Positions 5,786 through 60,150 of a stretch of DNA of 64,000 bases are shown here, in pieces; the stretch's first letter is position 1, and each line of letters starts with the position of its first letter. The stretch covers positions 78,836,969-78,900,968 of the forward strand of contig OX377205.1 of the NCBI GenBank assembly GCA_947396885.1, in the 5' to 3' direction. Origin of the DNA: Heligmosomoides polygyrus polygyrus (Eukaryota; Nematoda; Chromadorea; Rhabditida; Heligmosomidae). The notes under the pieces are model-generated. The model was not told where the DNA came from. It did not search any database and saw only the letters and a list, made by a program, of their open reading frames with translations. The translations under genes and the position numbers were made by a program.

Positions 5786-5924
5786 CTATGGTATGCTCCC
5801 GCGTCGCTCCAGCGACGGGCGCGGGGCAACTGTCAACGGCGCGCCTTCGCTGCGGTGGCGGACGGCGCAGTGGGGCGCGGTTGTCAGTTGACGCGCCATC
5901 GCTCCTGCGATGCGCGGAGAGAGC
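5786..5924. repeat. GC-rich direct repeat at the RTE 3' break
   Basis: Two imperfect copies start GGGCGCGG at 5818 and 5873. Each runs about 36 bp, includes an internal GTCAAC/GTTGAC-type palindrome, and ends GCGCGCC/ACGCGCC and TCGCT. The base composition is unlike the surroundings. Origin unknown. Confidence 0.5.
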
Positions 5925-7747
5925 TCAGTACCATCGATCTTAATAGATCCGTGCTCATTCACATCCGTCGTCAAGTATTCCGTCTTTTTGACGTTTAGCT
6001 TGAGACCGAACAATGCCAAACGATCGCACCACGCCTGTGCCTGTCGCTCGAGTTCGGTTTTGTCTTCACATGCAAGCATGACGTCGTCAGCATACAGCAG
6101 CGTCCAAGGTGCCGCCATTTGGAGATCTCGTGAGATTGCATCCATCACGACCACGAAGAGCAGTGGGGATAGCGCAGATCCCTGATGCACCCCTACAGAG
6201 ATGGGAAACTCCATCGAGGTGCCCGCTGGCGCTCGCACTCGACTCCTTGGGCAAGAGTATAGAATGCGCACCCACTCAATAAGCTCTTCAGGGATACCAT
6301 GTTGTCGCAACGCGTACCATATCACTTCACGCGGTACACGGTCAAAGGCCTTCTCTAAGTCGAGGAAGGCGATATGCACCGACTTCTGTTTCTCACGATG
6401 CTTCTCTATCGGGAGGCGGGCGGCGTGTATGGCATCAATGGTGCCACAGCCAGCCACGAAGCCGCACTGATTGCTGGAAAGCTGGACGATGTCACGAATT
6501 CGTCCGTCGACAATTTGCTCAAAGATTTTCATGGTGTGCGAAAGAAGACGAATTGGACGGTAACTGGCGCAGTCTGCAGGACTGCCCTTCTTCTTCCAAA
6601 TCGGGATGGTCGTGCTTTGCTGCCAACCCTCAGGCACTTTCTTCTCAGCAACAACCTGATTGAAAAACGCAGTCAGCCAGTCAGCAGGGCACCAGCCCTT
6701 CGACTTCCACAGGTCAGCTGGCAGGTCATCGGGACCAGTGGCTTTGCCTGACTTCATCTTCCTCAGGGCTGCTTCAGTTTCGCTCACTGTGATCTTCTGA
6801 ACGGGACCGTATACAGGTGATGCAAAAGGAACAACAGGATGTTCAAATTCTACATTCGAGATTTCCTCGAAGTAGTCGTGCCATCGCTTCACAGCCCTCT
6901 TACGATCCATCAGAAGATGACCGCTCTCGTCGTTAATGCCAAAGAACTTCTCAATGTCTTCTGCTTGGCGACAGCGAGCTTTGGCGAGTCGGTAAATATA
7001 ACGCTCACCATCGCGCGTTTCCAATTTTTTGCTGACATCAGCGTAGTATGCGGCTTTAGCAGCGGCCACTGCCTTCTTTGCCGCTTTCTTTGCTTCTCGA
7101 TAGTTCCGCCAATTATGGACTGTTTTGTCACCGATAAACACGTGATAGAGCCGTTTCTTTTCTCGGACTTTCTCTCTGACATCATCACTCCACAGCCATG
7201 CCTGCTTGTCGACCCAGCGTCGTCCAGGCTTCGTTGTGCCGAGTTCAAGGCGTGCAGCCCGAGTTATCGCATCGGTAGCGTCCTTCCAGGTTTCGTCGAC
7301 AGTTGTCACTGTCGGCAACCGAATGCGAGAAATAACTGCCGCTTCCTTCTCTTTCAGTCGCCACCATTTGATTCTAGCCGACCCACATCGCTCGACATGT
7401 TTACACCTCGAAGGTGTGATCTTCAGCGAGCAGATCAGTGGACGGTGTTGCGAGGCAACCGTCTCATACGGCACGGTCTTAGCGTCTGTGACAAGGCCTT
7501 GGTCGCGACGCCTAACAAGGACATAGTCAATCTGCGTTTTAGCATTCCCGCTATAAAACGAGATGAGGTGGGAGTCACGCTTTCGAAATTTATTGTTCAC
7601 GATGGTGAGGTCATGTGAGTCTGCATACTCAAGTATACGCTCACCATCGGCGTTGCGCGACCCATATCCAAAACCACCATGACAGTTGTAGCCGTCTTTC
7701 GTTGCTCCGACGTGACCATTAAGGTCACCTGCCACAACAACAGTTTA
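5925..7747 (-). mobile_element. RTE-type LINE, truncated at both ends, long open pol frame
   Basis: An almost uninterrupted minus-strand reading begins inside the APE endonuclease domain (VAGDLNGHVG), keeps SQHRPLICSL, and continues into reverse transcriptase. Visible motifs are the FLDLEKAFDRVPR block (first catalytic Asp), GVHQGSALSPLLF, and YADDVML. The N-terminal third of the endonuclease is missing, as in 5'-truncated LINE insertions. The reading leaves RTE similarity at about 5925, after DGTEL, so the C-terminal domain present in the copy at 57927-58502 is absent. The frame runs on to 5786 in unrelated GC-rich sequence. Confidence 0.9.
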
Positions 7748-9112: not shown

Positions 9113-10553
9113 CTAGGCAGCGACGTGAACACGTCGGTTTGCGTACGAACCGGCGGATACTCCACCGGAGTAAGATCCGCTTCCACCTCTGGCGCCACCT
9201 GAGTACGCGCCACCGTGGCCTGCTCCGCCAGCCGCTCTGCCACCCGAATACGATCCTCCCGAAGTCGCTGTAGGTCTTCGGGCTCCTCCTGAATACGCGC
9301 CTCCACCGCCGCTTCGAACAGCGGCAGTCGGCCTGTAGTTGACATGTGATGCCGAAGAGAAGGATCCTCCGCTCGATACAGCTCCTACGGAACCTACGCC
9401 CACGCTGCCTATGCGGTTCGGGCAAGGGCAGTATGCGGCGTCAGATCCAGGTGATCCGCTTGTTCCTGGCTGTCCGGCTCCTCCAGGAGTTCCAGGATAT
9501 CCGTCGTTACCACGGGGGCCCGGTGCTCCAGGTGCTCCCGGCGATCCTGCACCGAAGCTGTTACTTCCGTCTTGACCGTTTGAACCAGGTGGACCAGCTG
9601 GTCCGGGCGCTCCTGACGGGCCAGGTCTTCCGTATGATCTCGTTCCTGGAATGAGTAACGATACATCCTGCTTTGTGTTGGCGTTAATTCATGGAAGTAC
9701 CTGGTGCTCCAGGTTGACCGTCCTGTCCAGGTGCTCCAGGGTTTCCGTTAGGTCCCGGAGCTCCAGGAGCTCCAGCCGGTCCAGGTGCACCTGCAAAATT
9801 TTCGTGTTTTATAGCAGGGAAGACCAAAGAAGGAAGAGTTGTTTACCTCCTCCACCACCCTGTCCATCTTGTCCAGGGTTTCCAGATGGTCCTGCAGCTC
9901 CGGGGCCTCCATTAGGTCCTGGTGGACCAGGAGGTCCAGCTGGGCAAGAAATACAACCACTTCTGACGCTCTCCGAATGACTTGCTACTCCTGCTGAGCC
10001 TGAGCCTCCTGGTGCACCGGCTAGACCGTCTTCTCCTGGATGACCGGGTTGTCCCGCAGGCCCTAAATGTCATTTAATGAGTTGTTGGGAGTCACATCGT
10101 CGCAAGATTTTGAGGAGCGTAGCTGACCTGGTGGCCCTCGCGGGCATCCAGACGCCGCAGCAGCACACTGACAGCCTCCACCTCCGCCGCCACCACCTCC
10201 AGAGTAGCCTCCTCCACCACCTTCTCCAGTGCTGTAGCTGCCGTCTCTTCGGATTCTGGCCGAGAACACAGAGATGCGTGTAATGTCTTTTGGCTGCTGT
10301 GAGACCATCATGGTTTTCCAGGCGTCGTTTGCGATGGTCTGAATTGCTTCGCTTAATGGATGGCGTGACATTTACCTGTGGCATGGCTTCCCTTTCCGAA
10401 ACTCGCCTTGAATTGATCGAGGTCTTTCTCGACATCCCTCTGGAATTCGTTGATACCGTTGATGACGTCGAATATGATGACGAACGTCACAGCGAGGATC
10501 ACGCCGGTGCTAATGAAGGTACCAGCTATGGTGTAGTGGAGTATCGCGCCCAT
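9113..10553 (-). CDS. Cuticle collagen A (five coding exons)
   Basis: Predicted exons (minus strand) are 10553-10407, 10338-10128, 10062-9847, 9790-9701 and 9645-9113, giving about 398 residues. The N-terminus has a hydrophobic segment at about residues 8-32, as in nematode cuticle collagens. It is followed by ANDAWKTMM and a subtilisin/furin-type site RIRR at residues 77-80. Gly-X-Y blocks are separated by the cysteine motifs CQCA, CISCP and YCPCP, which would form interchain disulfides. The C-terminal tail repeats YSGG; such tyrosines are known cross-linking sites in nematode cuticle. All introns after exon 1 are in phase 1. Intron 1 begins with GC rather than GT, the only donor there that keeps the frame. 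The ATG directly follows a TTTCAG acceptor. A polyadenylation signal AATAAA lies at 9086-9081. The product would be secreted into the extracellular cuticle. The exact orthologue is not assigned. Confidence 0.92.
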
Positions 10554-10836
10554 CTGAAAGAGGAACAGTTTCGCCTACACTCTCTCGTTTTGGAAAGCAG
10601 TGGACAAATTTCAAGTACAGTAGGAATTTGGATCAGATAGTGTAAAACGCCCTTAAAGGTATGGCTCAAAGCCGGTAAAAATTCCGAGATGAGTGCTAAC
10701 TTGATTGCATAAATGTGAAGTGACCCCTTTAGGTAAACAGAAATTTCGGAGGTCAAGGTCGTTCTCGGTCTGTTTCTTTACAGTATTTCCTCGAATGCAA
10801 GAGTGGAAAGGTACGAAAAAGGTACAACCGCCTTAC

Positions 10837-16657: not shown

Positions 16658-18082
16658 TCAGACAGCGGCATGAACAAGGCGGTTTCTGTACGAACCGGCT
16701 CCGCCTGCACCAGCGGAATAAGTGGCTCCTCTGGCACCACCTGAGTATCCGCCACCGCGAGCAGCTCCAACAGACGCCCTTCCGGCTGAGTATGAGCCTC
16801 CGACGGGCTTTCTGATTCCACCTGAGTACGATCCACCGCCGCCTCCTCCTCCACCACCTGCTACGGCTCCTACGCTTGCGACACGAGATGGACATGGGCA
16901 GTATGCGCCATCACCTCCCGGTGATCCATTTCCTCCCGGCTGTCCAGCTCCTCCAGGTGCTCCTGGAGCTCCGTCATTTCCGCGAGGTCCCGCTGATCCT
17001 GGTGCTCCAGGAGTTCCGGCTCCGTAGCTGGTACCGTCCTGTCCGTTTGGTCCAGGTGGTCCAGCTGGTCCTGGTGCTCCTGATGGGCCAGGTTGACCGA
17101 ATGATCTGGTGCCTAAAAGGGCTCAGTTGTGATTCTGCCTTTCTTTGCGATCGTTTTTCAAGGTTACCTGGTGCTCCGGCTTGACCGTCCCGTCCACGTG
17201 CTCCAGGGTTTCCGTCAGGTCCGGGAGCTCCAGGGGGTCCAGGTGGGCCGGATTCGCCTGAAGCATTAGCATATTTTTGAGATGTGCATGACAATGTCAA
17301 AGACTTTCTTACCTCCACCGAAGCCCTGTCCGTCCTGTCCGGGGTTTCCAGAAGGTCCTGCTGCTCCAGGTCCTCCGTTAGGTCCAGGTGGGCCAGGTGG
17401 TCCTGCTGGGCATACAATACAGCCGCTTGACACACTCTCTGTGAAGCCTGATCCTCCAACTCCGCTCGCACCTGTTGCACCAGCCATACCGTCCTCTCCA
17501 GGATGACCCGGTTGACCAGCAGGTCCTAAAAGTTGCTTAGTGAATTGAGCTCAGTAAGGGTTATTCTGAGAGGATATAAGGTTTGTTTGGTTTGCTAACC
17601 TGGTGGTCCGGGTGGGCACCCAGCAGCCATAGCAGCGCACTGGCAGCCTCCTCCGCCACCACCTCCTCCAGCGTACCCTCCAGCGCCGCCGGCCGCGTAG
17701 CCTCCACGGCCACCTCCGGTGCTGTAGCTGCCACCTCTTCGGACTCTGGCCGAGAACACCGAGATCTCCGAGGGATCGCTGGTTTGTTGTGGGACCATCA
17801 TCGTCTTCCATGCGTCGTTCGCGATGTGCTGAAATCGTTGAGCTTCATGTCAGCTCGCAAAAATGCTTTCAGTCTGTACCGCTTGAGGAAACAGTTTGAC
17901 GTGTGGAGAAGACTTAAAGTGGTCTTTAGTCTCACCTTGAACTGGTCCAAATCCTTCTCGACATCCCTCTGGAACTCGTTGATATCACTGATGACGTCGA
18001 ATATGATCACAAACGTCGCTGCCAGGATGACGGCGGTGCTGATGAATGTGCCGGCGATGGCGTATTGGAGGATAGCACCCAT
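16658..18082 (-). CDS. Cuticle collagen B (five coding exons)
   Basis: Predicted exons are 18082-17936, 17828-17600, 17525-17313, 17257-17168 and 17112-16658, giving about 377 residues. All introns are GT-AG with the same phases as the other four collagens. The layout matches collagen A: an N-terminal hydrophobic segment, the conserved [17 protein letters not shown] stretch, ANDAWKTMM, an RVRR cleavage site at residues 77-80, and Gly-X-Y blocks flanked by CQCA, CIVCP and YCPCP. The tail is rich in GG-SYSAG type repeats. AATAAA lies at 16630-16625. Exon 2 is nearly identical to exon 2 of collagen D, more than the other exons are. The product is a structural component of the extracellular cuticle. 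Confidence 0.92.
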
Positions 18083-18252
18083 CTGAAAGCGGGGTTTGAC
18101 AGAATCAGGAAACGAAGGTCGTTGTGATGTCTGATAAGAAGTACAGCTCTTCAGAAATAATTGAAAAAAAAAGATAATAAAGGATTTTTTCGGACCAGCG
18201 AGAACAAGCAAATAATAGGGAAAAGTGTGAGACTGATGACTTCTAAGGCTAC

Positions 18253-20483: not shown

Positions 20484-21873
20484 CTAAGCCTGAACGCGGC
20501 GATTTCTGTACGATCCAGCTCCTCCACCGGCCGGATAAGATCCTGCTCCACTCTTGGCACCGCCTGAGTATGCGCCACCGCCAGCTGGTCTGCCAGCTGA
20601 GTACGATCCTGCTCCAGATGGCGCTGGAGCGCTGACTCCGGCTGAGTACGATCCTCCTCCACCGCCTACGGGGGTGCTACGAGAGGGACATGGGCAGTAT
20701 GCGGCGTCGGCTCCAGGTGATCCGGTCGCTCCAGGCAGGCCAGCTTGTCCGGGTGCTCCTGGAGCTCCGTCATTACCGCGAGGTCCTTGTGTTCCGGCTG
20801 GTCCTGGCGCTGCGTCGTTGTAGCTTCCACTGCCGTCTTCACCATTTGGACCCGCTGGACCAGCTGGTCCAGGCGCTCCCATAGGCCCGGGTAAGCTGAT
20901 CGTCCTTGTTCCTGAAAGCAATTATTTGTCACCACCGTCTAGCGTTGCTACTGTCTTTGCGGAGATACCTGGAGCTCCAAGTTGACCATCTTGTCCGGGT
21001 GCACCAGGAGTTCCATCGGGTCCAGCTGGCCCAGGTGCACCAGCTGGTCCAGGCTCTCCTGGAAAGCCAATTGGATTTTTCTAGCAAGGCAGAATAAAGC
21101 GTTTCAATGGGTTGATTACCTGGACCACTGCCTTGACCGTCTTGTCCAGGATTTCCAGAAGGCCCTGTTGGTCCTGCGCCTCCGTCCGGACCTGGTGGAC
21201 CTGGTGATCCAGCTGGACAAGCAATGCAGCCAGTTCCTACGCTTTCTGCATAGCCCGATTCTCCTGCAGCGCCTGCACCTCCTGGAGCTCCTGCTAGACC
21301 GTCTTCACCAGCATGACCAGGTTGTCCGGGAGGTCCTAAACGTCACCCAATGAGGTTATGGAAGAAGAGGAAGTGTTCGAATTTCCGAATGTAGTTGTTT
21401 ACCTGGTGGACCTGGTGGACATCCAGTTGTCGCTGCGGCACACTGGCAACCTCCTCCGCCTCCGCCAGCGACATATGAACCGCCTCCACCGCCTGCTGCG
21501 TATCCTCCGCCACCACCTCCAGTGCTGTAGCTGCCGCCTCTTCGGATTCTGGCTGAGAACACGGAGATCTTCGATGGCTGTTGGGTTTGCTGTGGGAGCA
21601 TCATGGTTGTCCACGCATCATTCGCAATCGACTGAAACATTTGTTCTTAATTGAGCGTTCAGCGGAACGCAGAACGTTTTCCGATGGGTGGAAACATCCC
21701 GAAGAGGCGCGGGGTCTTATGTGTACCTTGAACTGGTCCAAATCCTTCTCTACATCTTTCTGGAACTCGTTGATATCGCTGATGACGTCGAAGATGATCA
21801 CAAATGTGGCGGTGAGGATGAAAGCGGTGCTGACGAATGTGCCGGCGATGGCGTAGTGGAGTATAGCACCCAT
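20484..21873 (-). CDS. Cuticle collagen C (five coding exons)
   Basis: Predicted exons are 21873-21727, 21631-21403, 21335-21120, 21058-20969 and 20911-20484, giving about 369 residues. It has the N-terminal hydrophobic segment, the ANDAWTTMM motif, and an RIRR cleavage site at residues 77-80. Three Gly-X-Y blocks are bordered by CQCA, CIACP and YCPCP. The tail repeats GSYSAG and YSGG and ends SYRNRRVQA. All introns are GT-AG and the phases match the other collagens. AATAAA lies at 20463-20458. The acceptor before the ATG is TTCCAG. The leader exon is probably far upstream (ending at 23204), which would make a 1.33-kb leader intron holding a 31-bp hairpin. Confidence 0.92.
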
Positions 21874-22695
21874 CTGGAAGTAAAGCGGTAGTAGTTTCGT
21901 TGAGCGGTTTGAAGAAGACCACTTTATAAGGTATCCCAAAAAATCATTGCCTGTTTGAATGGTAATACATTTCTTGTTCCTTTAACTACAGTAGGGCTGC
22001 ATAAGGTGCTTCAAAATGTAAGAAGGCCGTGGGTCATGCTGCGTGTTTAGTACGCGCCGCGCTGCTGTTTAGCGTGCCGTGATGTTTGATTGGTTGATAG
22101 TTTACATTTCGCTTTTGTGAAGCTTTACAATCGAGTAATATAGTAGTAGTAATAGAAACAGTTTCGACTAAGGGAATAAGCAAAAGAAGAACTAGGACTT
22201 TATCTGGAAGAAATAGAGAATGGACTTGTAACAAATCGTGAAAAGAGGTTTAGTTTCACCGGCGTATTAAGGTGAACCTTTGCGTGATTCCTAAGGTTAA
22301 TGGTGTAATTTTCCGCCAGAACTTTTGCCATGAGGTGATCCGAAAGACTCGATAACAGCACAATTTCCTGGTCGAGAAAGGTTTTTCTTGAAAAGTGCAT
22401 TCTCCAAATCCGAAAAATGATAAACTGGTTAAGGTTCAATTCCTAAGTCAACAATTCTGGAATGAAATATCAAATATAATCGTAGTGAACTCAAAATATT
22501 GCTCAAGTTAAAGGTCGTTTTTAGGCCTCCGAAGACGACGACAAGGTCGAGACGTCAGGTCAATAAAAGTTCCAGCTAACAACCTTGTGGTACAAAAGTA
22601 TTACATATATGTAAGCGTTCAATTTAAAGGTCTTCAAGGGCAGCGTAAAAATTCGTGCAAAAAATGTTACTCGATTTCGAATTCTACCTAAACGG

Positions 22696-26526: not shown

Positions 26527-26860
26527 GGTTTAATTACCCAAGTTTGAGTTTTTAGGCTTTAAGGATGCTGCGTCATATCTTGTTTTCTACGAGACCTGTG
26601 CATATGAGCCTGGCTGCCCGGCGGTTACTGATAGGAATGAAGTTCGTTTCTACACATCTCGCCGGTTCAAACCGATTCAGTGGAAGGAGTCGGACTCAAG
26701 TTCGGACGTATTCCGCAAAGGCACCCCTTGTCCAGGAAACGCTGGACGAGCGTATTCTACATACTGGTGCTCTTCGATAAGATCGATCCGAAGAAGATGA
26801 CTGTGGGCTCTGATTACGTTAAGGATCTAGGCTATCGATTCGCTGGACCATGTTGAAATA
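26527..26860 (+). pseudogene. Mitochondrial acyl carrier protein retrocopy, 5' part with SL1
   Basis: It begins with a 22-base exact match to nematode SL1 (26527-26548) followed by 16 bases and ATG at 26565. No splice donor follows SL1, so this is not an SL RNA gene. The reading has an Arg/Ser-rich mitochondrial-type presequence and then, after a frameshift near 26778, FDKIDPKKM. After a second shift it has DSLDHVEI, where the Ser (26840-26842) is the phosphopantetheine attachment residue of acyl carrier proteins. The family is the mitochondrial ACP (NDUFAB1), a complex I subunit and fatty-acid synthesis carrier. There are no introns. The copy is cut at 26860 by a mariner and resumes at 28126. 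Confidence 0.85.
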
Positions 26861-28125
26861 TTAGGTTGGTGCATAAGTTCTCGGACATTTGATCCCTCCT
26901 GAATTGAAAGCGCATTTTCCCGCCAAATTTCTCACATATATCAACGCGTAAATGATCGATCGATAGAGAAAGGAAAGGGCTACAAAACTGTTCCTAACAT
27001 TTACTTCTGAGTTGTTAGCGTCAGCTATTATGGCTAAGCAATTCATCCCAACTGAGACGCATATTCGGCACGTCATGTTATTCCTGCATCAATCTGGCCT
27101 CAATGCCAACGAATCGTATCGTCGCCTGAAGGACGTTTACAACGAGAGTGCTCCGAAGTACTATGTACCAGTGGTTCTCGAAGCTTGCAGTTGGTGAATT
27201 CTCCGTTGAAGATAATGAACGAGAAGGGCGCTCGATGACGCTGGATTTGGATGGCCTCCGAAACAGAGTGGAAGCGGACCCATACCGAACCACTCGCGAA
27301 CTATCAAGCACTCTTGGTGTTAGTCACTCAACAGTCGCTCGAGGATTGAAGTCGATTGGCAAGGTGCAAAAATTGGGTCGCTGGGTACCTCACGACTTGA
27401 CACAACATGACATGGATCGCAGAGCCGATGTCGCTCTGTCTCTCCTTACCCTCAGACGTACCCACAGATGGCTGGACAACCTTGTCACCGAGGATGGAAG
27501 TGAATACTCTACTCTAATTACCACGGGCGTGCACAGTGGGTTGATGCAACTGGAGAGGCAGAGGACGTTCCGAAACCCGACCTTCACGTGAAAAAGGTGA
27601 TGCTATGAATTTGGTGGAGCGTTCTTGGCGTAGAATACTAGGAGCTGCTGGACGAAGGCATAACAGTGACGGCAGAGGTTTACGTCAACCAACTGAGGAA
27701 GTTGAGGGCCCACCTTCAAACCACACGAGGAGAGCAAGTGAAGGTGTATTTTCAACACGACAACGCTAGACCGCATATTGCTAGAGCGACGGCGGCTGAG
27801 TTGGCGGACTACGGATGGACCGTTCTTCCACATCCACCTTACTCACCAGATCTCCTTCTGATTATCATTTGTTTTCAAGCCTTCAACGCTATTTGGACTG
27901 CCAGCAATTTAGGAAACGGGAGGATGTCAAGGAGGCACTGCTCACCCTTTTCAAATCACAACCGGCCACGTTTTGGAGAAAAGGCATCCGTGACTTACCA
28001 GCACGTTGGCGAAAGACAATTGATGTAAACGGTGGTTACTTCAAATGAATTGATATTGTTGTTCGTATGTTGTGATTATAAATATTTCATGCCCCAAATG
28101 TCCGAGAACTTATGCACCAACCTAA
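26861..28125 (+). mobile_element. Full-length mariner with perfect 31-bp inverted repeats
   Basis: The terminal repeats 26861-26891 and 28095-28125 are identical over 31 bp and start TTAGGTTGGTGCATAAG. The flanking TA duplication is at 26859-26860 and 28126-28127. Length is 1265 bp. The transposase reading starts at 27030 (MAKQFIPTETHIR), shows WFSK and GEFSVEDNEREG, then YFQHDNARPH with the second catalytic Asp, HPPYSPD, and SPSDYHLF. Frameshifts lie near 27165, 27590 and 27850, and the first catalytic region is degraded (VTEDGSEY). The source protein is therefore dead, but the ends are intact. Confidence 0.92.
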
Positions 28126-28298
28126 TAATAAAGGCTATGAAGGATGAGGAGTTCGGGTTCGAAATTCCTGATGGAGGCGCCTGCAGACTCAAGACGCCAC
28201 GAGATATCCTCCAATATGTTGAGGATCGCGAATATGTCTTTACTGGTTCGACTTTTGATCGACTGCTAATTTTAGGAGTTGTGCTTTTCTTGTGGTGA
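28126..28298 (+). pseudogene. Mitochondrial acyl carrier protein retrocopy, 3' part
   Basis: This continues the reading broken at 26860. If the mariner and one TA copy are discounted, EII-KAMKDEEFGFEIPD follows in frame from DSLDHV. It then encodes RLKTPRDILQYVEDREYVF, typical of the ACP C-terminus. The remaining sequence to the stop at 28298 is less conserved. No poly(A) tract is visible. The arrangement shows the mariner arrived after the retrocopy. Confidence 0.85.
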
Positions 28299-28454: not shown

Positions 28455-29809
28455 TTAAGCGGCAACGTGAACGCGTCGCTTGTTATATGAACCAGCGGCT
28501 GCTGCGCCTGCGGAGTAAGATCCCCTTCTGGCACCAGCCGAGTATGCTCCACCGCGGACAGCTCCGCCGGCCGAGTACGATCCTCGAGAAGGAGCTGCTG
28601 GCCTGACTGCAGCTGTGTACGCTGCTCCTCCTACGGCTGCGACACGAGATGGACATGGACAGTATGCGGCGTCTCCTCCAGGTGATCCACTTGCTCCCGG
28701 CTGTCCAGCTCCTCCGGGTGCTCCCGGAGCTCCGTCATTACCACGAGGTCCCGGTGGTCCTGGTGCTCCAGGGGTCCCAGCTTCATAGCTGCCTCCGTCT
28801 TCACCATTTGGACCAGGTGGACCAGCCGGTCCGGCAGCTCCTGATGGTCCAGGTTGACCGAACGATCTTGTTCCTAAAAAACTGGTTAGCCGTTTTGTCC
28901 TATCATCGTTGCTGCTCAGAAGTTACCTGGTGCTCCGGGTTGACCGTCTTGTCCAGGTGCTCCAGGGTTTCCGTCTGGTCCGGGTGGTCCAGGAGGTCCA
29001 GGTGGTCCGGATTCACCTGGAATGTTTGAGTATTCTATTATAGAAGGATGAACCTGATAAATAGAAGGTAGTTTACCTCCAACATAGCCTTCTCCGTCTT
29101 GTCCAGGGTTTCCGGAAGGTCCTGATGCTCCTGGGCCTCCGTCAGGTCCAGGTGGACCTGGTGGTCCTGCTGGGCATACAATGCAGCCTGTTGACGCGCT
29201 CTCTGTGTAGCCTGATCCTCCTACTCCACTTGCTCCAGGTGCACCTGCCAGGCCGTCTTCTCCAGGATGACCCGGTTGACCAGCGGGTCCTGAACGTTAC
29301 TTATTGATTATGAGTAATAGGCCACTGTGAACTTATGGAGATGTTCACTGACCAGGCGGTCCTGGTGGACATCCAGCAGCTTTGGCAGCACATTGGCAGC
29401 CTCCTCCGCCACCACCTCCTCTAGCGTATCCTCCAGCGCCGCCGGCCGCGTAGCCTCCACGGCCACCTCCGGTACTGTAGCTTCCTCCTCTTCGCACTCT
29501 GGCTGAAAACACCGAGATCTCCGAGGGATCGCTGGTTTGTTGTGGGACCATCATCGTCTTCCATGCGTCATTCGCGATGTGCTGAAATTGTCGCGACAAT
29601 CAGCAGGAAATCAGTTAGATTCTGGAAGGAATCATCAAAGAGAAGAATCATCCTTGGCTTACTCTGAACTGGTCTAGGTCTTTCTCGACATCTCGCTGGA
29701 ACTCGTTGATATCACTGATGACGTCGAATATGATCACAAACGTTGCTGCCAGGATGACAGCTGTTGTGACGAACGTACCGGCGATGATATAGTGAAGTGT
29801 AGCTCCCAT
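28455..29809 (-). CDS. Cuticle collagen D (five coding exons)
   Basis: Predicted exons are 29809-29663, 29581-29353, 29289-29077, 29016-28927 and 28873-28455, giving about 365 residues. It has the same exon phases, N-terminal hydrophobic segment, [13 protein letters not shown] site (residues 77-80), CQCA, CIVCP and YCPCP motifs as the other copies. The tail has SYSAG repeats and ends NKRRVHVAA. Exon 1 ends Q-F-R with donor AGA/GTAAGC. AATAAA lies at 28427-28422. The leader intron (29810-30213) carries a tRNA-derived SINE. The product is a secreted cuticle component. Confidence 0.92.
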
Positions 29810-29826
29810 CTGAAAGCGAAGCAGTG

Positions 29827-29925
29827 GTGTAAAGGCGTAGAGCATTTCCGCCCGGTCAGAGGGAGGTGCGGGTTCGAGTCCCGACTGGCGCTAGAAGTTT
29901 TGATCGCAACAAAACATCGTTGTGA
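29827..29925 (+). mobile_element. SINE family 2 inside the collagen D leader intron
   Basis: TGGTGTAAAGGCGTAGAGCA, then GGTGCGGGTTCGAGTCCCG, ACTGGCGCTAGAAGTTTTGA and CAAAACATCG. It lies 18 bp upstream of the collagen D ATG, on the opposite strand. Confidence 0.65.
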
Positions 29926-38991: not shown

Positions 38992-40243
38992 TCAGAGGGC
39001 GTGCAGACGACGCTTGTTGTACGGGCCGGAATCACCGCCTCCGCCGTGGCCGAAAGAAGCGCCTCCGCCGCTGCTGACCTGAGCTCCTCCGCCACCGCCG
39101 AATGAGCTGGTTCTCGCTGGACATGGGCAATAGGCAGCGTCTGAGCCCGGTGCTCCTGATGATCCTGGCTGTCCTGCGCCTCCTGGTGCTCCGGACGTTC
39201 CAGGGTTACCAGCTGGTCCAGGTGCTCCTGCGGGTCCAGGTGCTCCCGCTCCATAGCTGCTGCCGTCCTGACCATTTGAACCAGGTGGACCCTGTGGTCC
39301 TGGTGCTCCAGCTGGTCCTGGGTAGCCAGTCGAGCGAGTTCCTGAAAGTAACTTCTGAATGTGGAAAAAAGTTGCTCTTCTAGAGACTAGGGTAGAAAGT
39401 ATTGAAGATTACCTGGTGCGCCGGGAGCTCCATCTTGTCCTCGTGCGCCAGGGTTTCCGTTAGGTCCAGGAGCGCCGGGAGCTCCGGCTGGTCCAGGTGC
39501 ACCTGCATAATTATTCGTACACTATTGCATCTCTCCATGTGGATATGAGAGCGTGAGGCTACGTACCTCCGCCGCCGCCCTGTCCGTCTTGTCCAGGGTT
39601 TCCAGATGGTCCCGCTGCTCCTGGTGCTCCATTAGGTCCTTGAGGACCGGGTGGTCCGGCGGGGCAGCTGATACAACCGCTGATATGAGGACTGCCAGAA
39701 ACGGCTTGGCCGGGGTATCCTGACTGTCCAGGAATTCCAGGCTGACCGTCTTCTCCGGGCACTCCAGCATGTCCAGGAGGTCCTGAAACGCGATGAGTAT
39801 AGAAAGAGAAGGGGTTGATAGTTCAAATGGCTTTACCAGGTGGTCCACGAGGGCAAGATGCGGCCTGCGCAGCGCACTGACATCCTACAGATTCGCCTCC
39901 GCCTCCACCGCCGTAAGATTCGGCAGTTCCTTCCGAATACGAGCCTTGTCTTCTGACTCGGATAATCGACTCGTAGAAGGCGTGCTGTTCCGGCACCGGG
40001 GCGTTGGTGGCCATCATTACTTTCCAAGCGTCATCGGCAAGATTCTACAAGTGTGCTTTGCTGACCTGTAGACTAAAGGTGGCCGTGAAGACTCACCTTG
40101 AACTGGTCGAGATCCTCCTCGACTTTCGTGCGGAACTCGCCAATTTCGTCGACGATGTCGAGGACGATGAGGAAGGTGGTTCCGAGAAGAATGCCGGTGC
40201 AGATGAAGGTGCCGAGAATGCTATAGTAAGTGACAGCACCCAT
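38992..40243 (-). CDS. Cuticle collagen E, divergent member (five coding exons)
   Basis: Predicted exons are 40243-40097, 40044-39837, 39782-39567, 39502-39413 and 39341-38992, giving about 336 residues. Exon number and phases are the same as A-D, but the sequence is the most divergent. The hydrophobic segment and the ADDAWKVMM motif are altered, and the cleavage site RVRR is at residues 78-81. The CQCA, CISCP and YCPCP cysteines are kept. The tail is short, Gly-rich and lacks the YSGG/SYSAG repeats of A-D, ending [14 protein letters not shown] lies at 38969-38964. The ATG follows TTTCAG. I could not find the promoter block of A, B and D upstream, so its expression may differ. Confidence 0.9.
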
Positions 40244-40984
40244 CTGAAAGTCGATCTTAATGAATAGGTAAGGGCAATACAACGGCAAAGAGACGCACCA
40301 TTCGCGACCATGTCATGCGACACATCTTGTGGCGAATGACTCAATTCAACCTTACAACGACAACAGCAACAAGACGAGGGCCAGTTTCTTCTTTTTTGCT
40401 GACCGCGCGCGTGCATGTCATCGCCGTTGTTTAAAGTACGTCGTGAACGCGAAATAGGTGGAATACAAAGGTCTCATTGAAAAATACTGGGCGCCGTCTG
40501 TTAGGTGACGGATGCCAACCAAAAGGAATTGACCGAAAGTCGAATAGTACTCGGCGAATGCGACAACAGTTGTTTCGGTCAGAAATCGTGGAACCTTGGT
40601 ACTCGCCAAGAGCCAAGAAGCGTCGGATGCCGTCACATCGCTCCTCCAGGTAGCCAAGATGGGATTGAAAGGTCTTAAGGTAGAGAGATCGTCAAGGACA
40701 AGACTTTGTACGGCATATGTGTCCCAGTTTAATGCGTGCCCGCATTTTCTATTGAAGGGATGGAATAGTTCAGTCAGAAATGTCTTTCAAATTCAGAATT
40801 GCTTGGAAGTGGAGAGAAAACAATAAAATGAAACAAAAAAATGTTTAAGATAGTCAATCCCTTGGGGATGCGTCTCTTGGACCTAGGACGAGTAGATTGC
40901 GGTGCAAAAATACCATAGAAATCTCCCGGCACCAACGAATACCCCGTTTAACGTGCTTTTGTAGACTACAATCTAGGCCTAATA

Positions 40985-54019: not shown

Positions 54020-54626
54020 TTATTGGCTAACGTTTCGGCGGCATCGCCTTCTTGAGAGCCCGTAAGGAGGTATCAAGTGAAAATATGGATACTGCGTCAG
54101 ATGTCGCCTCAGCTTTAAAAATTCAAGGCCAACTTTCGATGACGTGGTCAATAGAAAGATCGAGACCCTCACCTTACAGAAGCCAGACGGGCCAATCGGT
54201 CGGTAGCAGGACCGTTGTCGAGACACAGGCGCCGCAATCAGAATGCTAACCTGATGTAGGGCTTGAGCTCTCGTGTTATATAGAGACATTCCGATTTAGC
54301 TTGGGGTCTTTGGCATGAATCCAAAACGCCTCCAGAGTCTTGCGGGCGGCACTTTGGACTTCACTGCCAGCAGCTTGACCCTGACCTCAAATTCCTCCCA
54401 CGTATGCCTGTGGACTCCATGGTGACCCATTGCAGTGGACGTTCTGGACTTGGCTTTGCCGTCAAGGTGTTTCTTGACCCTAACATGTAGGGTCTCACCG
54501 ATATATTCCTCGCCACAGCTCTGGTAGGTAGTGAGGTATACCACACCTGATAAGGTGCAGTCCTTTGCTGCCATGTGGGCAGACGGCGCAACCAGGGTGA
54601 GAGGCGATCGTAAGGACGATTTCGAA
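54020..54626 (-). mobile_element. Penelope-like element fragment: GIY-YIG domain and 3' end
   Basis: The minus-strand reading (54626 to 54296) contains SGVVYLTTYQSCGEEYIGET, a GIY-YIG endonuclease motif, and RVKKHLDGKAKSR. This is the C-terminal domain of Penelope-like retroelements. The 3' region continues to about 54020 and aligns with 59880-60150. Near its end is a hammerhead-like motif (54060-54027) with CTCAAGA in place of CTGANGA. The reverse transcriptase is missing; the element is cut at 54626 by the 42-bp palindromic repeat. Confidence 0.7.
54027..54060 (-). ncRNA. Decayed hammerhead-like motif in the minus-strand Penelope copy
   Basis: On the minus strand: GGCT, CTCAAGA, a stem II with GGC/GCC, GAAACGTTAGCC and AATAAAGATTCG. 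It differs from the 60111 copy by C in place of the invariant G of CTGANGA, which should inactivate it. Confidence 0.5.
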
Positions 54627-54630
54627 CTAT

Positions 54631-54880
54631 ACTTCGGACCGAATCGAATAAATTCGAATGAATATTCGAATAAATTCGAATATTCGAATATTCATTATTC
54701 GAATATTCGGTGAGGCCCAAAATTCGAAAATGTTCATTATTCGAATATTCGATGAGGCCAAAAATTCGAATATATTCGTTATTCGAATATTCGACAAGGT
54801 CCAAAATTCGAATATATTCGTTATTCAACTATTCGACGTGCCCCAAAATTCGAATATATTCGAATATATTCGACGCTACT
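54631..54880. repeat. 42-bp palindromic tandem repeat, block 1
   Basis: AT-rich units built on TTCGAATATTCG, each followed by a short spacer such as GTGAGGCCCAAAA. Unit starts at 54694, 54736 and 54778 show a 42-bp period. The block starts ACTTCGGACCGAATCGAAT. It interrupts the Penelope fragment at 54626. Confidence 0.85.
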
Positions 54881-55042
54881 GAGATAGACTACTGGGAGTC
54901 AGTTTTTGCGCCTTCTGGATATAACTCGCCTAAAGTCAAGTATATGAAAAACCAAGGGTAATTTGAGCTCAGCAGCTCGAGCTCTATCGTTTGGTATACA
55001 TATTTCATATGGAGCCATGAAATTGTTCGAAATTGGAAACAT

Positions 55043-55369
55043 GTTTAATTACCCAAGCGAAGGCCGACCAATGGACTTGAGAGACATGAACGATGCGGCC
55101 AAGGACGACCTCTGTCTAAAGTACTTCATCGTCGGTTTGTTTGGTCTACCGTTGGTGTGGCTTAGGAACACATTCTGGTTCTTTGGTTGAGGCTTTCTTC
55201 GACCGCAATCACCGGCCACCAATACCAATCGGAACACGCTGAATACCAAGGAGCGATCTTCTGGTTAATAGTAATATGTGTCTGGGAGACCATCTTCCAG
55301 TCGTACCGTTCGAAAAGTGTCGGATGGGCAGACTATTTGACATTCATCTTCTCAGTCGGAAGGATATAG
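55043..55369 (+). pseudogene. PEN-2 (gamma-secretase subunit) retrocopy carrying SL1 remnant
   Basis: The 15 bases GTTTAATTACCCAAG (55043-55057) match the SL1 spliced leader and lie 13 bases upstream of ATG at 55071. The reading MDLRDMNDAAKDDLCLKYF followed by LPLVWLRNTFWFFG is typical of PEN-2, the small membrane subunit of the presenilin complex. A frameshift at about 55188 precedes EAFF. A second shift and a loss of about ten residues precede AIFWLIVICVWETIFQSYR and WADYLTF, ending at 55369. There are no introns. This is a processed copy of a trans-spliced mRNA; the functional gene must be elsewhere. Confidence 0.85.
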
Positions 55370-55569
55370 ACTGGCTGCGATCTCACCCCAAATTGCCACA
55401 GCATCATTCATCCTTCTCAAAGTCCTTTTCTGTGATTCACTTGTAGGAGACCTTATTTCTCAGCTTAACGACGAGGTGTTTCCTCACTCAATTGTTGTTT
55501 TATCTTGCCCGGGTTTGTAACATAAAACATCATATACATATTAATATAATGCCTTTAAATAACATGTCG

Positions 55570-58513
55570 TGTTTGAGATTACGTTTTGGTGGCGATGTCC
55601 GTTCCTCCTCGTGGTGCCACTGGAAACTGCTCGCTTCTGCGAGCTAAGCCAATCACGGACATTCGAATGCAGGCGACAGGCCCTCGTGACAGGCCGGCCT
55701 ACGAACAACCCAATGTCACATCACATGGTGTATGTCATTTCATGTTTTTCGAGATAATGCTACGGCGTTCGCGGGAGCCGACGCGCATTCGCGAAGCCCG
55801 GCGAGTGTGAGAAGTATGCGAGGGTCCCTGGTGCGAGGACGGCATCGGGGGCAACTGAGCTAGTCCGAAAGTCCCGTAACGTAAGCAGGACCCGCGTAGC
55901 AACGCTGAATGTGGGTACGTTGACGGGCCGCTCGTGCGAGTTGGTGGAAGCACTTGAGCGTAGAAGAGTTGATTTTTGTGCGGTGCAGGAGATGAGGTGG
56001 TCCTGCCGCAAGTCAAGGGACATAGGACGTGTCTTCAAGGCCGTTCTATGTGGAAGTCCCAGGACCACCAGTGGTGTTGGTATAATCGTCTCTGAGCGTT
56101 TCCGAGACTCGATTGTAAGCGTCGAGCGCTTTGACGATCGATTGATGAAGATCGTTGTCGCCGCTAAGGAACGACTCTTCCACTTCTTCTCTGCGTATGC
56201 TCCGCAGACTGGCTGTTCCGATCAAGCCCAAGGATGAGTTTTGAAGCCTGCTTGATGAGAAGACGGGTGAGCGCTTTCGTGATTACGCGGAATCGCACAA
56301 CCTCACCATAATGAACACCGTGTTTCGCAAACGCAACTCCCACCTTATCTCGTTCTATAGTGGGAACACCAAGACGCAGATAGACTTCGTCCTTGTGAGA
56401 GATCGTGACCGAAATCTCGTCACAGACGCGAAGTATGAACGGTCGCGGTGCTGCAAGAATCGAGTGGTGGCGAATGAAAGAGAAAGAAGCAGCTGTGATT
56501 TCTCGCGTACGGTTACCGACAGTCACGACTGTCGACGAAACTTGGAAGAAAGCGACGGACGCGATACTTCAAGCTGCGAGGTCAGAACTTGGCACTACGA
56601 AGCCTGGACGACGAAGGTCGACATGCAGGCATGGATGTAGACGAACGATGTGATATAAAAGGTTCGAGAGAAGAAGGCGCTTTATCATGTGTTTCTCGGC
56701 GACAAGACCACCAATAATTGGCAAAAGTACCACGAAGCGAAAAAAGCTGCCAAGAAGGCTGTGGCCATAGCAAAAGCCACTCGTTACAATGATGTCTACG
56801 AAAAGCTTGAGTCGCGCGATGGCGAGCGGTATTTGTTCCGACTTGCGAAAAACCGTCATCGCCAATCCGAGGATATAGAGAAGTTCTTTGGCATCAATGA
56901 TGAGAACGGCCATCTTCTGACAGAGCGCAAAAAGGCCTTGAAGCGATGGAGCGATTATTTCGAGGGAATTTCGACTGAAGAGTTTCCTCATCCGGCCGTC
57001 CCTTCTGTGGCTCCTATCCACGGTCCCGTCCACAAAATCGCTGTGGAGGAAACTGACGCGGCTCTGAAGATGATGAGACCGGGCAAGGCGACTGGTCCAG
57101 ATGACTTGCCAGCTGACTTATGGAAGTCGAAGTTCTGGTACTCTGCTGAGTGGTTGGCCAAGTTTTTCCACCAGGTTGTAGCGGAGAAGAAGGTGCCTGA
57201 TGTTTGGCAGGAAAGTACGACGATCCCGATTTGAAAAGAAGAAGGGCAGCCCTGCGGACTGCTCAAATTACCGTCCGATTCGGTGGCTCTCGCACAGCGT
57301 GAAGATCTTCGAGCGAATCCTCGATAACCGAATTCGCGAAATCGTCAAGCTTTCCAGCAATCAGTGCTGCTTCGTGGCTGGTTGTGGCACTATCGACGCC
57401 ATACATGCCGCCCGTCTTCTGGTAGAGAAGCATCGCGAGAAACAGAGGCCGGTGCATCTTGCCTTTCTGTACTTGGAGAAGGCCTTCGATCCCGTACCGC
57501 GTGAGGTTATGTGGTACGCCCTACGACAGCACGGTGTTTCCGGAGAACTTGTAGAGTGGGTGCGATTGCTATACTCTTGTCCAAAGAGTCGTGTGCAAGC
57601 GGCAACAAGAACCTCGACGGAGTTTCTCATCTCTGTTGGGGTGCACCAAGGTTCAGCCCTTTCTCCGCTCCTCTTTGTTGTAGTCATGGATGCCATTACG
57701 CGAGATCTTTACAAGCCCGTCCCTTGGACGTTGCTATATGCTGATGACGTGATGCTCGAAACAAAGTTGAGCTCGAGCGAGAGGTGCAAGCTTGGTGCGA
57801 CCGCCTGGCCATGTTCTGACTCAAATTGAACGTCAAGAAGACCGAGTATTTCACGACTGACGTTAATGAGTTCGGCTCCCTAAGATTAACGGTACTGAGC
57901 TTCCACGCACTTCGGTGTTTAAATAGTTGGGATCAGCAATAGCCTCTGATGGTAGTCTGATGGTTGAAGTGAACTTACGCGTGAGTGCAGCATGGTCGAA
58001 GTGGCGCTCGTTGACTGGAGTACTCTGCGACAAGAAGATGCCAGAGCGCTTAAAGTCGAAGATCTACAAAACCGTCGACCGGCCGGTAGCGATGTACGGA
58101 GCGGAGTGTTGGCCTGCGACAAAGGAAACGGAAAGTCGCCTCAGCGTAATGGAAACGAAGACGCTGCGCTGGATGGCTGGAGTCACGCGCCTGGACCTCA
58201 TCCGAAACGAGACTATTCGGAAGAAGTTCGGTGTCGCGCCGATAGCGGACAAGATGCGCGAAGCTCGCTTACGATGGTACGGCCACGTTCTACGTGGAAA
58301 GGAAGACAGCGCCCGTAAGATAGGTCTTAACTTCGTAATGTCTGGAAAACGGCCTAGAGGGCGCCCGAAGCAGCGCTGGGCTGATACGTTACACAAGGAC
58401 TTTAAAGTAGCTGCTGTCCACCCTGATCTAGCACGGGATCGGGAAAGATGGCGACATGGCACCAGAAAAGCGGACCCCGTCATGAAGCGGGACAAACGCT
58501 GAAGAAGAAGAAG
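55570..58513 (+). mobile_element. RTE-type LINE, nearly full length but frameshifted
   Basis: From 5' to 3': the endonuclease start TLNVGTLTGR and CAVQEMRW (55900-56000), SAYAPQTG (56195-56220), a linker matching the 5925-7747 copy, reverse transcriptase with FLYLEKAFDPVPR, GVHQGSALSPLLF and YADDVML (57460-57770), and a C-terminal domain (57927-58502) with AVMYGAECW-like and GRPKQRWAD motifs. It ends in a GAAGAAGAAGAAG tail at about 58513, the short-repeat 3' end typical of RTE. Stops and shifts near 56237, 56440, 56640, 57230 and 57770-57830 make it non-coding. The FLD catalytic motif reads FLY here. Confidence 0.88.
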
Positions 58514-58763
58514 TTTGAGATTACGTCTATTTCTGTATTTGCTTTACGAGGGTCATTAGAAGCCGTAGAATGTTTACAATTTCAACCAAATATTCGCTAT
58601 TGATAAATTTTGTGGCACTATGTCAGTTGTGCGTTAGGTCGGAATTCATTAAGACTAGAAGAGTTTGGATTTGAAAATTCAAGACACGATCTTACAGAAG
58701 AATTTGGAAAAAGCATTTAGCCTAGGGCTCAATTTGACATCCATTTCAAATACATCTGTCGTG

Positions 58764-59040
58764 TACTTCGGACCGAATCGAATAATTTCGAACGAATATT
58801 CGAATAAATTCGAATATTCGAATAAATTCGAATATTCGAATATTCATTATTCGAATATTCGGTGAGGCCCAAAATTCGAAAATGTTCATTATTCGAATAT
58901 TCGATGAGGCCCAAAATTCGAATATATTCATTATTCGAATATTCGACAAGGTCCAAAATTCGAATATATTCATTATTCGAATATTCGGTTTTTCGTGAAA
59001 CCGAATATATTCGATTATTCGTTTATTCGAAAAAATTTTG
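58764..59040. repeat. 42-bp palindromic tandem repeat, block 2
   Basis: Same unit, orientation and start (TACTTCGGACCGAATCGAAT) as block 1, 4.1 kb away. It is also adjacent to Penelope sequence, which begins at 59053. Confidence 0.85.
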
Positions 59041-59052
59041 GAAGGACACAAG

Positions 59053-60150
59053 TATATTTCGAACTAGCTGCCGCCTCAGGTTGTCTGGCAGCACCTCGAC
59101 AATAGCTACCACATTCTCCAGCCCGGCTCTCCTCACACATTTCAGAAGGGAGGTGCCTACATCGTCGGAGATGGATGGCTCCTTGAAAGGTGCCTTCCCA
59201 GAAATGGCGCGGCTACTGCGTTCATCCACGTAACACCTCCGTAACACTAAAGATATAACGCTGGGCTTATGCTTATGCTATTGCTAGCCTTTCTTGTTCC
59301 AGCTTCCTTTACTCTTTACGCTTTTCCACTGGACCACACTGGAACAAGAAATTTCGGCTAGCAATAGCATAAGCATAAGCCTATCGTTACATATTCAGTG
59401 TTACGGAGGTCCTTCCGGGATCGAAACGATTACCGCGCCATTTCCAGGAAGCTAATATTCAAGGAGCCATCCATCTCCGACGTAGGCACTTCCCTTCTGA
59501 AGTGTGTGAGGAGAGCCGGACTGGCGAATGTGGTAACCACCAGAGAATCTAAGACGGCAGCTAGATTGGAATCGTCCTTACAATCATCTCTGTGCTATTC
59601 CTGGTTGCGCCGTTTGCCCGAATGGCAGGGAAGGGGACTGCACCGTATCAGGTGTGCTATAACTCATTACCTGCAAGAGCTGTGGTGAGGAATATACCGG
59701 TGAGACGGCGCGACCCCTAAATATTAGGGTCAAGGAACACCTTGATGGCAAGGCCAAGTCCAGGATGTCCACTGCACCATAGAGTCCACGGGCATACGGG
59801 GGAGGGCATTGAGATCAGGTCAGGCTCCTGAGAGTCGAAGCCCAAAGTGCCTTCCTCAACGTCCTCTAGGCGTTTTGGATTCATGTTAAAGATCCCAAGC
59901 TAAACCGGAAGGAAGAGTGCCTCTATGTAACACGGGAGCTGCTGTGTCTTGACAATGGCTCTGCTACCGACCGATTGACCCGTCCGGCTTTCTGTAAAGT
60001 GAGGGTCTCGATCTGTTTATTCACTACGTGATCGAAAGGTGGTCTTCAATTTCTACAGTTGAGGCGACGTCTGACGCGGTAGCACATTTTGATTTGATCC
60101 TTCATTTCAGGCTCTGAAGAGGGCGATACGGCCGAAACGTTAGCGAATAA
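59053..60150 (+). mobile_element. Penelope-like element fragment with inverted 5' arm and ribozyme-like 3' end
   Basis: The plus-strand part (59339-60150) encodes the linker SISDVGTSLLKCVRRAGL, then CAIPGCAVCPNGREGDC, then SCGEEYTGET and RVKEHLDGKAKSR of a GIY-YIG domain, with an in-frame stop and a shift. Its 5' portion is duplicated in inverted orientation at 59053-59302, forming a palindrome of about 250-bp arms around a 36-base loop (59303-59338). The element ends in a hammerhead-like motif and AATAAAG. Partly inverted copies are typical of Penelope elements. No reverse transcriptase domain remains. Confidence 0.7.
60111..60144 (+). ncRNA. Hammerhead-ribozyme-like motif, core intact
   Basis: The order of parts is GCT, CTGAAGA (60114-60120), a short imperfect stem II (60121-60133), GAAAC (60134-60138), GTT, and AGC (60142-60144) able to pair with the GCT. 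This fits the minimal type I hammerhead reported in Penelope-like elements, where stem III is so short that two copies must act as a dimer. Predicted cleavage is after 60141. Activity is inferred. Confidence 0.55.

What the first reader, a model, noticed from the sequence alone, without database searches (positions are those of the whole stretch)
55043..55369. Second SL1-marked retrocopy: PEN-2 pseudogene next to an RTE element
Fifteen bases of SL1 lie 13 bases upstream of an ATG opening an intronless PEN-2-like reading with two frameshifts and a short deletion. A 15-base chance match at this position is very unlikely. The copy lies about 200 bp before the start of an RTE LINE, a plausible source of the reverse transcriptase. 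Two such cases in 64 kb suggest that retrocopying of trans-spliced mRNA is frequent in this genome.
Basis: partly seen in the sequence, partly recalled or inferred. Interest (0 to 1): 0.8.

Follow-up and report, generated by a model that had tools for sequence, protein, structure and literature searches.

The report
Leader-tagged dead gene copy in transposon
A roundworm gene's messenger RNA, with its added leader tag, appears to have been copied back into the DNA, died, and now sits inside a larger inserted DNA unit; the neighbouring retrotransposon inserted on its own and does not show what made the copy.

Summary
SL1 bases 2-16 lie exactly at 55043-55057, 13 nt before the ATG of a broken PEN-2 reading; 0.0007 such 15-mers are expected in the window. 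The copy is contiguous where gene models of two related genera imply an intron. The tag lacks SL1's first base and last six.

The RTE (55585-58513) has its own 13-bp target duplication, so it inserted independently and does not identify the source of the copy. PEN-2 and RTE both lie inside one inserted unit (54630-59056) with S repeats at both ends and a 10-bp target duplication; joining its flanks restores homology to another copy of the target element. So PEN-2 was probably carried there as a DNA passenger.

Four PEN-2-like models are named Heligmosomoides polygyrus. One, P0003, shares the SL1-derived stretch, two codons before it and, by inference, two lesions. Nested shared changes suggest copies of copies. 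The mtACP copy at 26527, with complete SL1 and an apparently lost intron, is the cleaner retrocopy.

'Frequent' is untested: the genome search did not complete (14 of 14 calls).

The parts
55043..55057 (+). SL1 remnant, spliced-leader positions 2-16
   Evidence: exact 15-mer
55071..55369 (+). PEN-2 processed pseudogene (stop TAG 55367-55369 at the native place)
   Evidence: Pfam PF10251 and PDB hits to both halves, tblastn of relatives
55188..55190 (+). in-frame TGA in place of Glu40
   Evidence: probably shared with P0003 (inferred from its shifted-frame residues LWLRL)
55230..55249 (+). region where the reading frame is lost (6-bp deletion against P0003, 1-bp loss against P0002); bounds approximate
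55300..55301 (+). FQ|SY junction, contiguous here; intron position implied by gene models of Nippostrongylus and Ancylostoma
54630..59056 (+). single inserted unit: S' repeat, PEN-2 region, nested LINE, S repeat
   Evidence: joined outer flanks align through the junction to a homologue of the target; TSD
54620..54629 (+). left copy of the unit's TSD, TTTCGAACTA (8-bp parse TTTCGAAC and 11-bp parse ATTTCGAACTA also possible)
59057..59066 (+). right copy of the unit's TSD, TTTCGAACTA
54630..54873 (+). S' repeat, left end of the unit (may run to 54945, CAAGTATA)
58764..59056 (+). S repeat, right end of the unit
55585..58513 (+).
   Evidence: RVT_1 1.9e-23; own TSD
55572..55584 (+). left TSD of the LINE, TTTGAGATTACGT
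58514..58526 (+). right TSD of the LINE
26527..26548 (+). complete SL1 (22 of 22) of the companion mtACP copy, whose ATG is at 26565

Best explanation
An SL1 trans-spliced PEN-2 mRNA of a Heligmosomoides-like nematode was reverse transcribed and inserted, leaving an intronless copy headed by SL1 (shown: the tag and the uninterrupted reading; inferred: the event and the lost intron). The copy decayed. A stretch holding it, bounded by two S-family repeats, moved as one unit into a GIY-YIG (Penelope-like) element and made a target duplication of about 10 bp (shown: the duplication, the restored target, the S repeats at both ends; inferred: movement by a DNA transposase using the outer S ends). 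A LINE of RTE type inserted into the same stretch with its own 13-bp duplication (shown); whether before or after the unit moved is not shown. Copies in H. polygyrus arose at least partly from earlier copies (inferred from nested shared changes).
For: SL1 match far above chance. PEN-2 identity. Phase-0 intron after Gln77 implied by P0021 (ends FQVCFFG) and P0013 (insert ending FTFQ before TYR), absent at 55300/55301. LINE TSD. Unit TSD: TTTCGAACTA occurs twice in the window, 0 of 100 shuffles with two; a 10-bp duplication at 6 of 200000 random junction pairs; joined flanks align to the target homologue with no gap at the junction, though with gaps elsewhere. Both unit ends are S repeats with the same 21-base start and, over the first 200 bp or so, 192 matches, 3 mismatches and 22 gap columns; possible short inverted ends TATACTT/AAGTATA. 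P0003 shares MFNYPSEGRP, GN before it and the shifted middle frame. At sites invariant in P0002 and the seven proteins of other species tabled: I21V in 5 of 5 copies, I53N/D in window, P0010 and P0004, P97S in window, P0003 and P0004; the copies without P0011 group at 94/94 in a 13-row tree.
Against: SL1 is incomplete: base 1 and bases 17-22 are missing. No A-run over 5 after the stop and no firm TSD of the PEN-2 copy itself (14 of 200 shuffles as good). The parent gene's 5' UTR and exon map were not seen; P0002 lies on one 3564-bp contig of unstated kind, and if that is genomic DNA the parent itself may be intronless. S' and S agree only over their left parts; the shared CAAGTATA scores no better than chance as a local match (185 of 1000 shuffles). 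Whether P0003, P0004, P0010 and P0011 lie in S-flanked units is unknown; some may be haplotypes. P0003 may be the same locus in a sister species. The tree, with 34 of 101 columns of P0003 masked, puts P0003 with P0010 (83/72), not with the window.
Confidence: 0.68

Rival explanations
1. The S repeat alone was inserted in the target and then duplicated in tandem; the PEN-2 mRNA copy was later retroposed between the two S copies, so PEN-2 never moved as DNA.
For: S is repeat-rich and prone to expansion (inference); S' lacks the right part of S; a weak TSD candidate GAAATTGGAAA/GAATTTGGAAA brackets PEN-2.
Against: The self-comparison found no S-like match in the bases between S' and PEN-2 or between PEN-2 and S; P0003 shares two codons upstream of the SL1 remnant, as passenger flanks would.
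Confidence: 0.2
2. The 15 SL1 bases are a chance match in a PEN-2 leader, and the copy is an ordinary duplicate of a PEN-2 gene with an N-terminal extension MFNYPSEGRP.
For: The stretch is in frame and kept in P0003; SL1's last six bases are absent.
Against: Expectation about 3e-7 in a given 50-nt stretch; none of the other 11 PEN-2 proteins has the extension; an inferred intron is missing.
Confidence: 0.06
3. The nearby RTE supplied the reverse transcriptase or carried PEN-2 as a 5' transduction.
For: The LINE lies 215 bp downstream and has a reverse transcriptase domain.
Against: Its own TSD begins after PEN-2, so PEN-2 is outside its insertion. A relative elsewhere could still have made the copy; this one gives no evidence for it.
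Confidence: 0.05

Closest known systems
SL-tagged retrogenes of dinoflagellates (DinoSL relicts; PMC6050394, passages read)
   Same: A spliced leader kept in DNA 5' of a copied coding sequence marks the mRNA origin
   Different: Nematode SL1, a dead copy, apparently carried on by a DNA unit; the dinoflagellate cases are abundant retrogenes
Retrocopies of Caenorhabditis (PMC3532220, start of abstract and passages read)
   Same: mRNA-derived gene copies in nematodes; [quoted passage not shown]
   Different: 'SL1' and 'spliced leader' have 0 occurrences in that text
Transduplication in Turmoil-1 of C. elegans (PMC2572040, abstract read)
   Same: A nematode transposable element carries pieces of host protein-coding genes
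   Different: There the pieces lie in inverted terminal repeats; here a processed copy lies between two direct repeats
Processed pseudogenes made by LINEs (recalled)
   Same: Intronless, decayed, full-length coding region
   Different: No poly(A) tail or firm TSD of its own seen

Membership tests
processed pseudogene / retrocopy | introns of the parent missing | tested here: met
   FQ|SY junction contiguous although P0021 and P0013 imply an intron there; met against gene models of other genera only, the parent's own gene was not seen
processed pseudogene / retrocopy | poly(A) or other 3' tail | tested here: not met
   longest A-run 4 in 55370-55584 and 5 in 58527-58763; age may have erased it
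processed pseudogene / retrocopy | target-site duplication of its own | tested here: inconclusive
   11 nt with 1 mismatch; 14 of 200 shuffles as good
SL-tagged retrocopy | spliced leader in DNA directly 5' of the copied mRNA | tested here: met
   15 of 22 bases exact; partial tag
RTE-made retrocopy | 3' end like the LINE's (GAA)n tail | tested here: not met
   tail of the LINE is GAAGAAGAAGAAG; no such run seen by eye between the PEN-2 stop and S, only AGAAGAA at 58697
composite DNA-transposon unit | TSD around the outer ends | tested here: met
   TTTCGAACTA twice, restored target
composite DNA-transposon unit | terminal inverted repeats | tested here: inconclusive
   7 bp, TATACTT, only if an 8-bp TSD is assumed
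composite DNA-transposon unit | same unit in other genomic places | not testable with these tools
   The genome search did not answer in 14 of 14 tries
LTR retrotransposon carrying a captured gene | two LTRs alike over their whole length | tested here: not met
   S' and S agree only over their left parts

The most novel reading that the evidence does not exclude
In Heligmosomoides an SL1-tagged PEN-2 retrocopy was captured between two short transposons and then multiplied through the genome as DNA, so that SL1 remnants mark the descendants of one ancient retroposition and have entered public gene models as peptide (FNYPS in P0003).
Probability: 0.35. Interest if true: 0.65.

Novelty: new variant of a known kind. 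Interest (0 to 1): 0.5.

Why it matters
A spliced leader frozen in DNA marks an mRNA origin even when tails and duplications are gone, so SL1 could serve as a genome-wide tag for retrocopies in nematodes as DinoSL does in dinoflagellates. The nested anatomy warns that counts of SL1-plus-coding matches overstate retroposition if tagged copies are multiplied as DNA, and that SL1 remnants can be annotated as protein.

Tried and rejected
Looked for other PEN-2 DNA in genome contigs and viral contigs with P0002: 62 and 9 pattern matches, none a relative by tblastn. Searching with P0003 gave 10 proteins, none but P0003 itself with the MFNYPSEGRP extension. LTR reading rejected because S' and S differ in their right parts. 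5' transduction by this LINE rejected by its TSD. A TSD of the mtACP copy itself: none convincing (98 of 200 shuffles as good). Rfam at gathering scores found one tRNA in the window and no SL RNA gene. The third SL1-like site (2369-2348, minus strand, 19 of 22) has no Pfam hit in the two overlapping reading frames tested downstream. Order of LINE insertion: I first took it as later than the unit's insertion; the data show only that it is nested, so the claim was dropped.

Literature: in listings (20 of 1,150 shown; 12 of 107 shown), 67 and 68 no title or shown abstract start describes SL1-tagged retrocopies in nematodes. Beyond listings I saw passages of PMC3532220, PMC6050394, PMC10682056 and PMC13195028 (0 occurrences of RTE, retrocop, spliced leader, hAT or Penelope in the last) and the abstract of PMC2572040.

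Full report
What is there. The window holds an exact 15-base piece of SL1 (positions 2-16) at 55043-55057, 13 nt before an ATG at 55071. The only longer exact SL1 match is the complete 22-mer at 26527. A third-order Markov model expects 0.0007 SL1 15-mers in the window and 2.8e-7 in a given 50-nt stretch. The reading that follows is PEN-2: Pfam PF10251 hits both halves above its cut-off and human PEN-2 chains match both halves. Against the closest intact relative, P0002 (101 aa, source 'lgn', species not named), the native reading carries an in-frame TGA at Glu40 and loses frame between about 55230 and 55249.

Processed origin. Two public models point to an intron after Gln77. The Nippostrongylus model P0021 runs on as FQ-VCFFG, as it would on reading into a GT intron. 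The Ancylostoma model P0013 has an insert ending in FTFQ just before TYR. In the window FQ and SY are contiguous (55300/55301). This is an inference from protein models; no relative's DNA was seen, nor the Heligmosomoides parent. P0002 lies on one 3564-bp contig; whether that is RNA or genomic DNA is not stated, and if genomic the parent itself may be intronless.

Companion case. At 26527-26548 a complete SL1 is followed after 16 nt by an ATG and a mitochondrial acyl-carrier-protein-like reading, broken by frameshifts and a mariner transposon. Its last part matches mitochondrial ACP chains (best E 2.7e-7); its first part does so only weakly (E 0.7), and Pfam scans of its pieces gave no ACP hit. 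The H. polygyrus model P0016 has 18 extra residues, VSFSEVHRLSRSSIRSFQ, between YSAK and APL, which read like a 54-nt in-frame GT-AG intron. The window copy and P0014 lack them. This case is stronger than the PEN-2 one.

The LINE. It ends in GAAGAAGAAGAAG and is bracketed by TTTGAGATTACGT (55572-55584 and 58514-58526). It is therefore an insertion event of its own, beginning after PEN-2. It gives no evidence about what made the PEN-2 copy. Whether it came before or after the larger unit moved is not shown.

The larger unit. Outside both PEN-2 and LINE lie two S repeats, 54630-54873 and 58764-59056, in the same orientation. They share the first 21 bases and, over their first 200 bp or so, have 192 matches, 3 mismatches and 22 gap columns; their right parts differ. 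Directly outside them TTTCGAACTA occurs on both sides and nowhere else in the window. When the two outer flanks (54401-54629 and 59067-59230) are joined at this duplication, they align to a second copy of a GIY-YIG (Penelope-like; weak Pfam hit, E 0.048, under the cut-off) element on the other strand, searched in 59381-59860. There is no gap at the junction, though there are gaps elsewhere. So 54630-59056 most likely entered as one unit. Its ends can be read as TATACTT/AAGTATA with an 8-bp TSD, or TACTT/AAGTA with a TSD of 10-11 bp. The first would be like hAT elements (recalled, not tested). Without the LINE and one copy of its TSD the unit is about 1.5 kb, and its inner part holds the PEN-2 copy.

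Copies elsewhere. Of 12 proteins found with the PEN-2 query, four are named Heligmosomoides polygyrus: P0003, P0004, P0010 and P0011; some could be haplotypes of one locus. P0003 begins MGNMFNYPSEGRPMDLR, which is the window's SL1 stretch and the two codons before it, read in frame. It then continues in the same shifted frame as the window, which in the native frame implies the same stop at Glu40. The two differ at 8 of 108 aligned residues and by one 2-residue gap. They probably descend from one dead copy with one 5' junction. They could be the same locus in sister species, since H. bakeri and H. polygyrus differ by 6.6% at synonymous sites (PMC10682056, passages), or duplicates in one genome. 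The window's species is not known to me; its nearest named relatives include H. polygyrus (closest named for PEN-2).

Nested changes. Across the five copies (window and the four models), I21V is shared by all. I53N/D is shared by the window, P0010 and P0004, and by P0003 on an inferred reading. P97S is shared by the window, P0003 and P0004; P0010 has no residue there. These sites are invariant in P0002 and the seven proteins of other species in the table. A tree of 13 rows puts the copies and P0002 together (95/98) and the copies without P0011 together (94/94). Inside, it joins P0003 to P0010 (83/72) rather than to the window, with 34 of 101 columns of P0003 masked, so the order there is not settled. 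Repeated retroposition of a conserved parent would not easily give such nested changes at conserved sites, so at least some copies are probably copies of copies. A second, diverged source gene is a remaining alternative; P0004 has an intact reading.

Judgement. SL1-tagged retrocopy: well supported. Origin from the neighbouring LINE: not supported. Passenger in a mobile unit: supported for this locus by the target duplication and restored target, though the order of events inside the unit is inferred. Genome-wide frequency: untested, because the genome search failed in 14 of 14 tries.

Noticed in passing
26527-28280 (+): Complete SL1 plus mtACP-like processed copy, split by a mariner with TA target; the H. 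polygyrus gene model P0016 appears to retain a 54-nt in-frame intron that the copy lacks.
   Followed up: yes
2369-2348 (-): Third SL1-like site, 19 of 22 bases, GGTTTGATCACCCAAGTTTGGG; two matches within 3 mismatches in the window (this and 26527) against 0.01 expected; no Pfam family in the two frames tested downstream.
   Followed up: partly
P0003 (H. polygyrus protein model, 110 aa): Public gene model that appears to be a pseudogene: its start translates an SL1 remnant (FNYPS) and its middle is read in a non-native frame.
   Followed up: partly
59067-59560: Inverted repeat: the target element continues from 59067 and reappears on the other strand within 59381-59860.
   Followed up: partly
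9116-10563, 16661-18250, 20487-21981, 28458-29828, 38995-40264 (-): Five collagen-like genes or remnants on one strand by eye (approximate bounds, not scanned for families), 64-79% alike in the pieces aligned.
   Followed up: no
5789-7744 (-): A second LINE of the same kind with a 652-codon frame between stops; 76% identical to the one beside PEN-2 over 1458 aligned bases.
   Followed up: no
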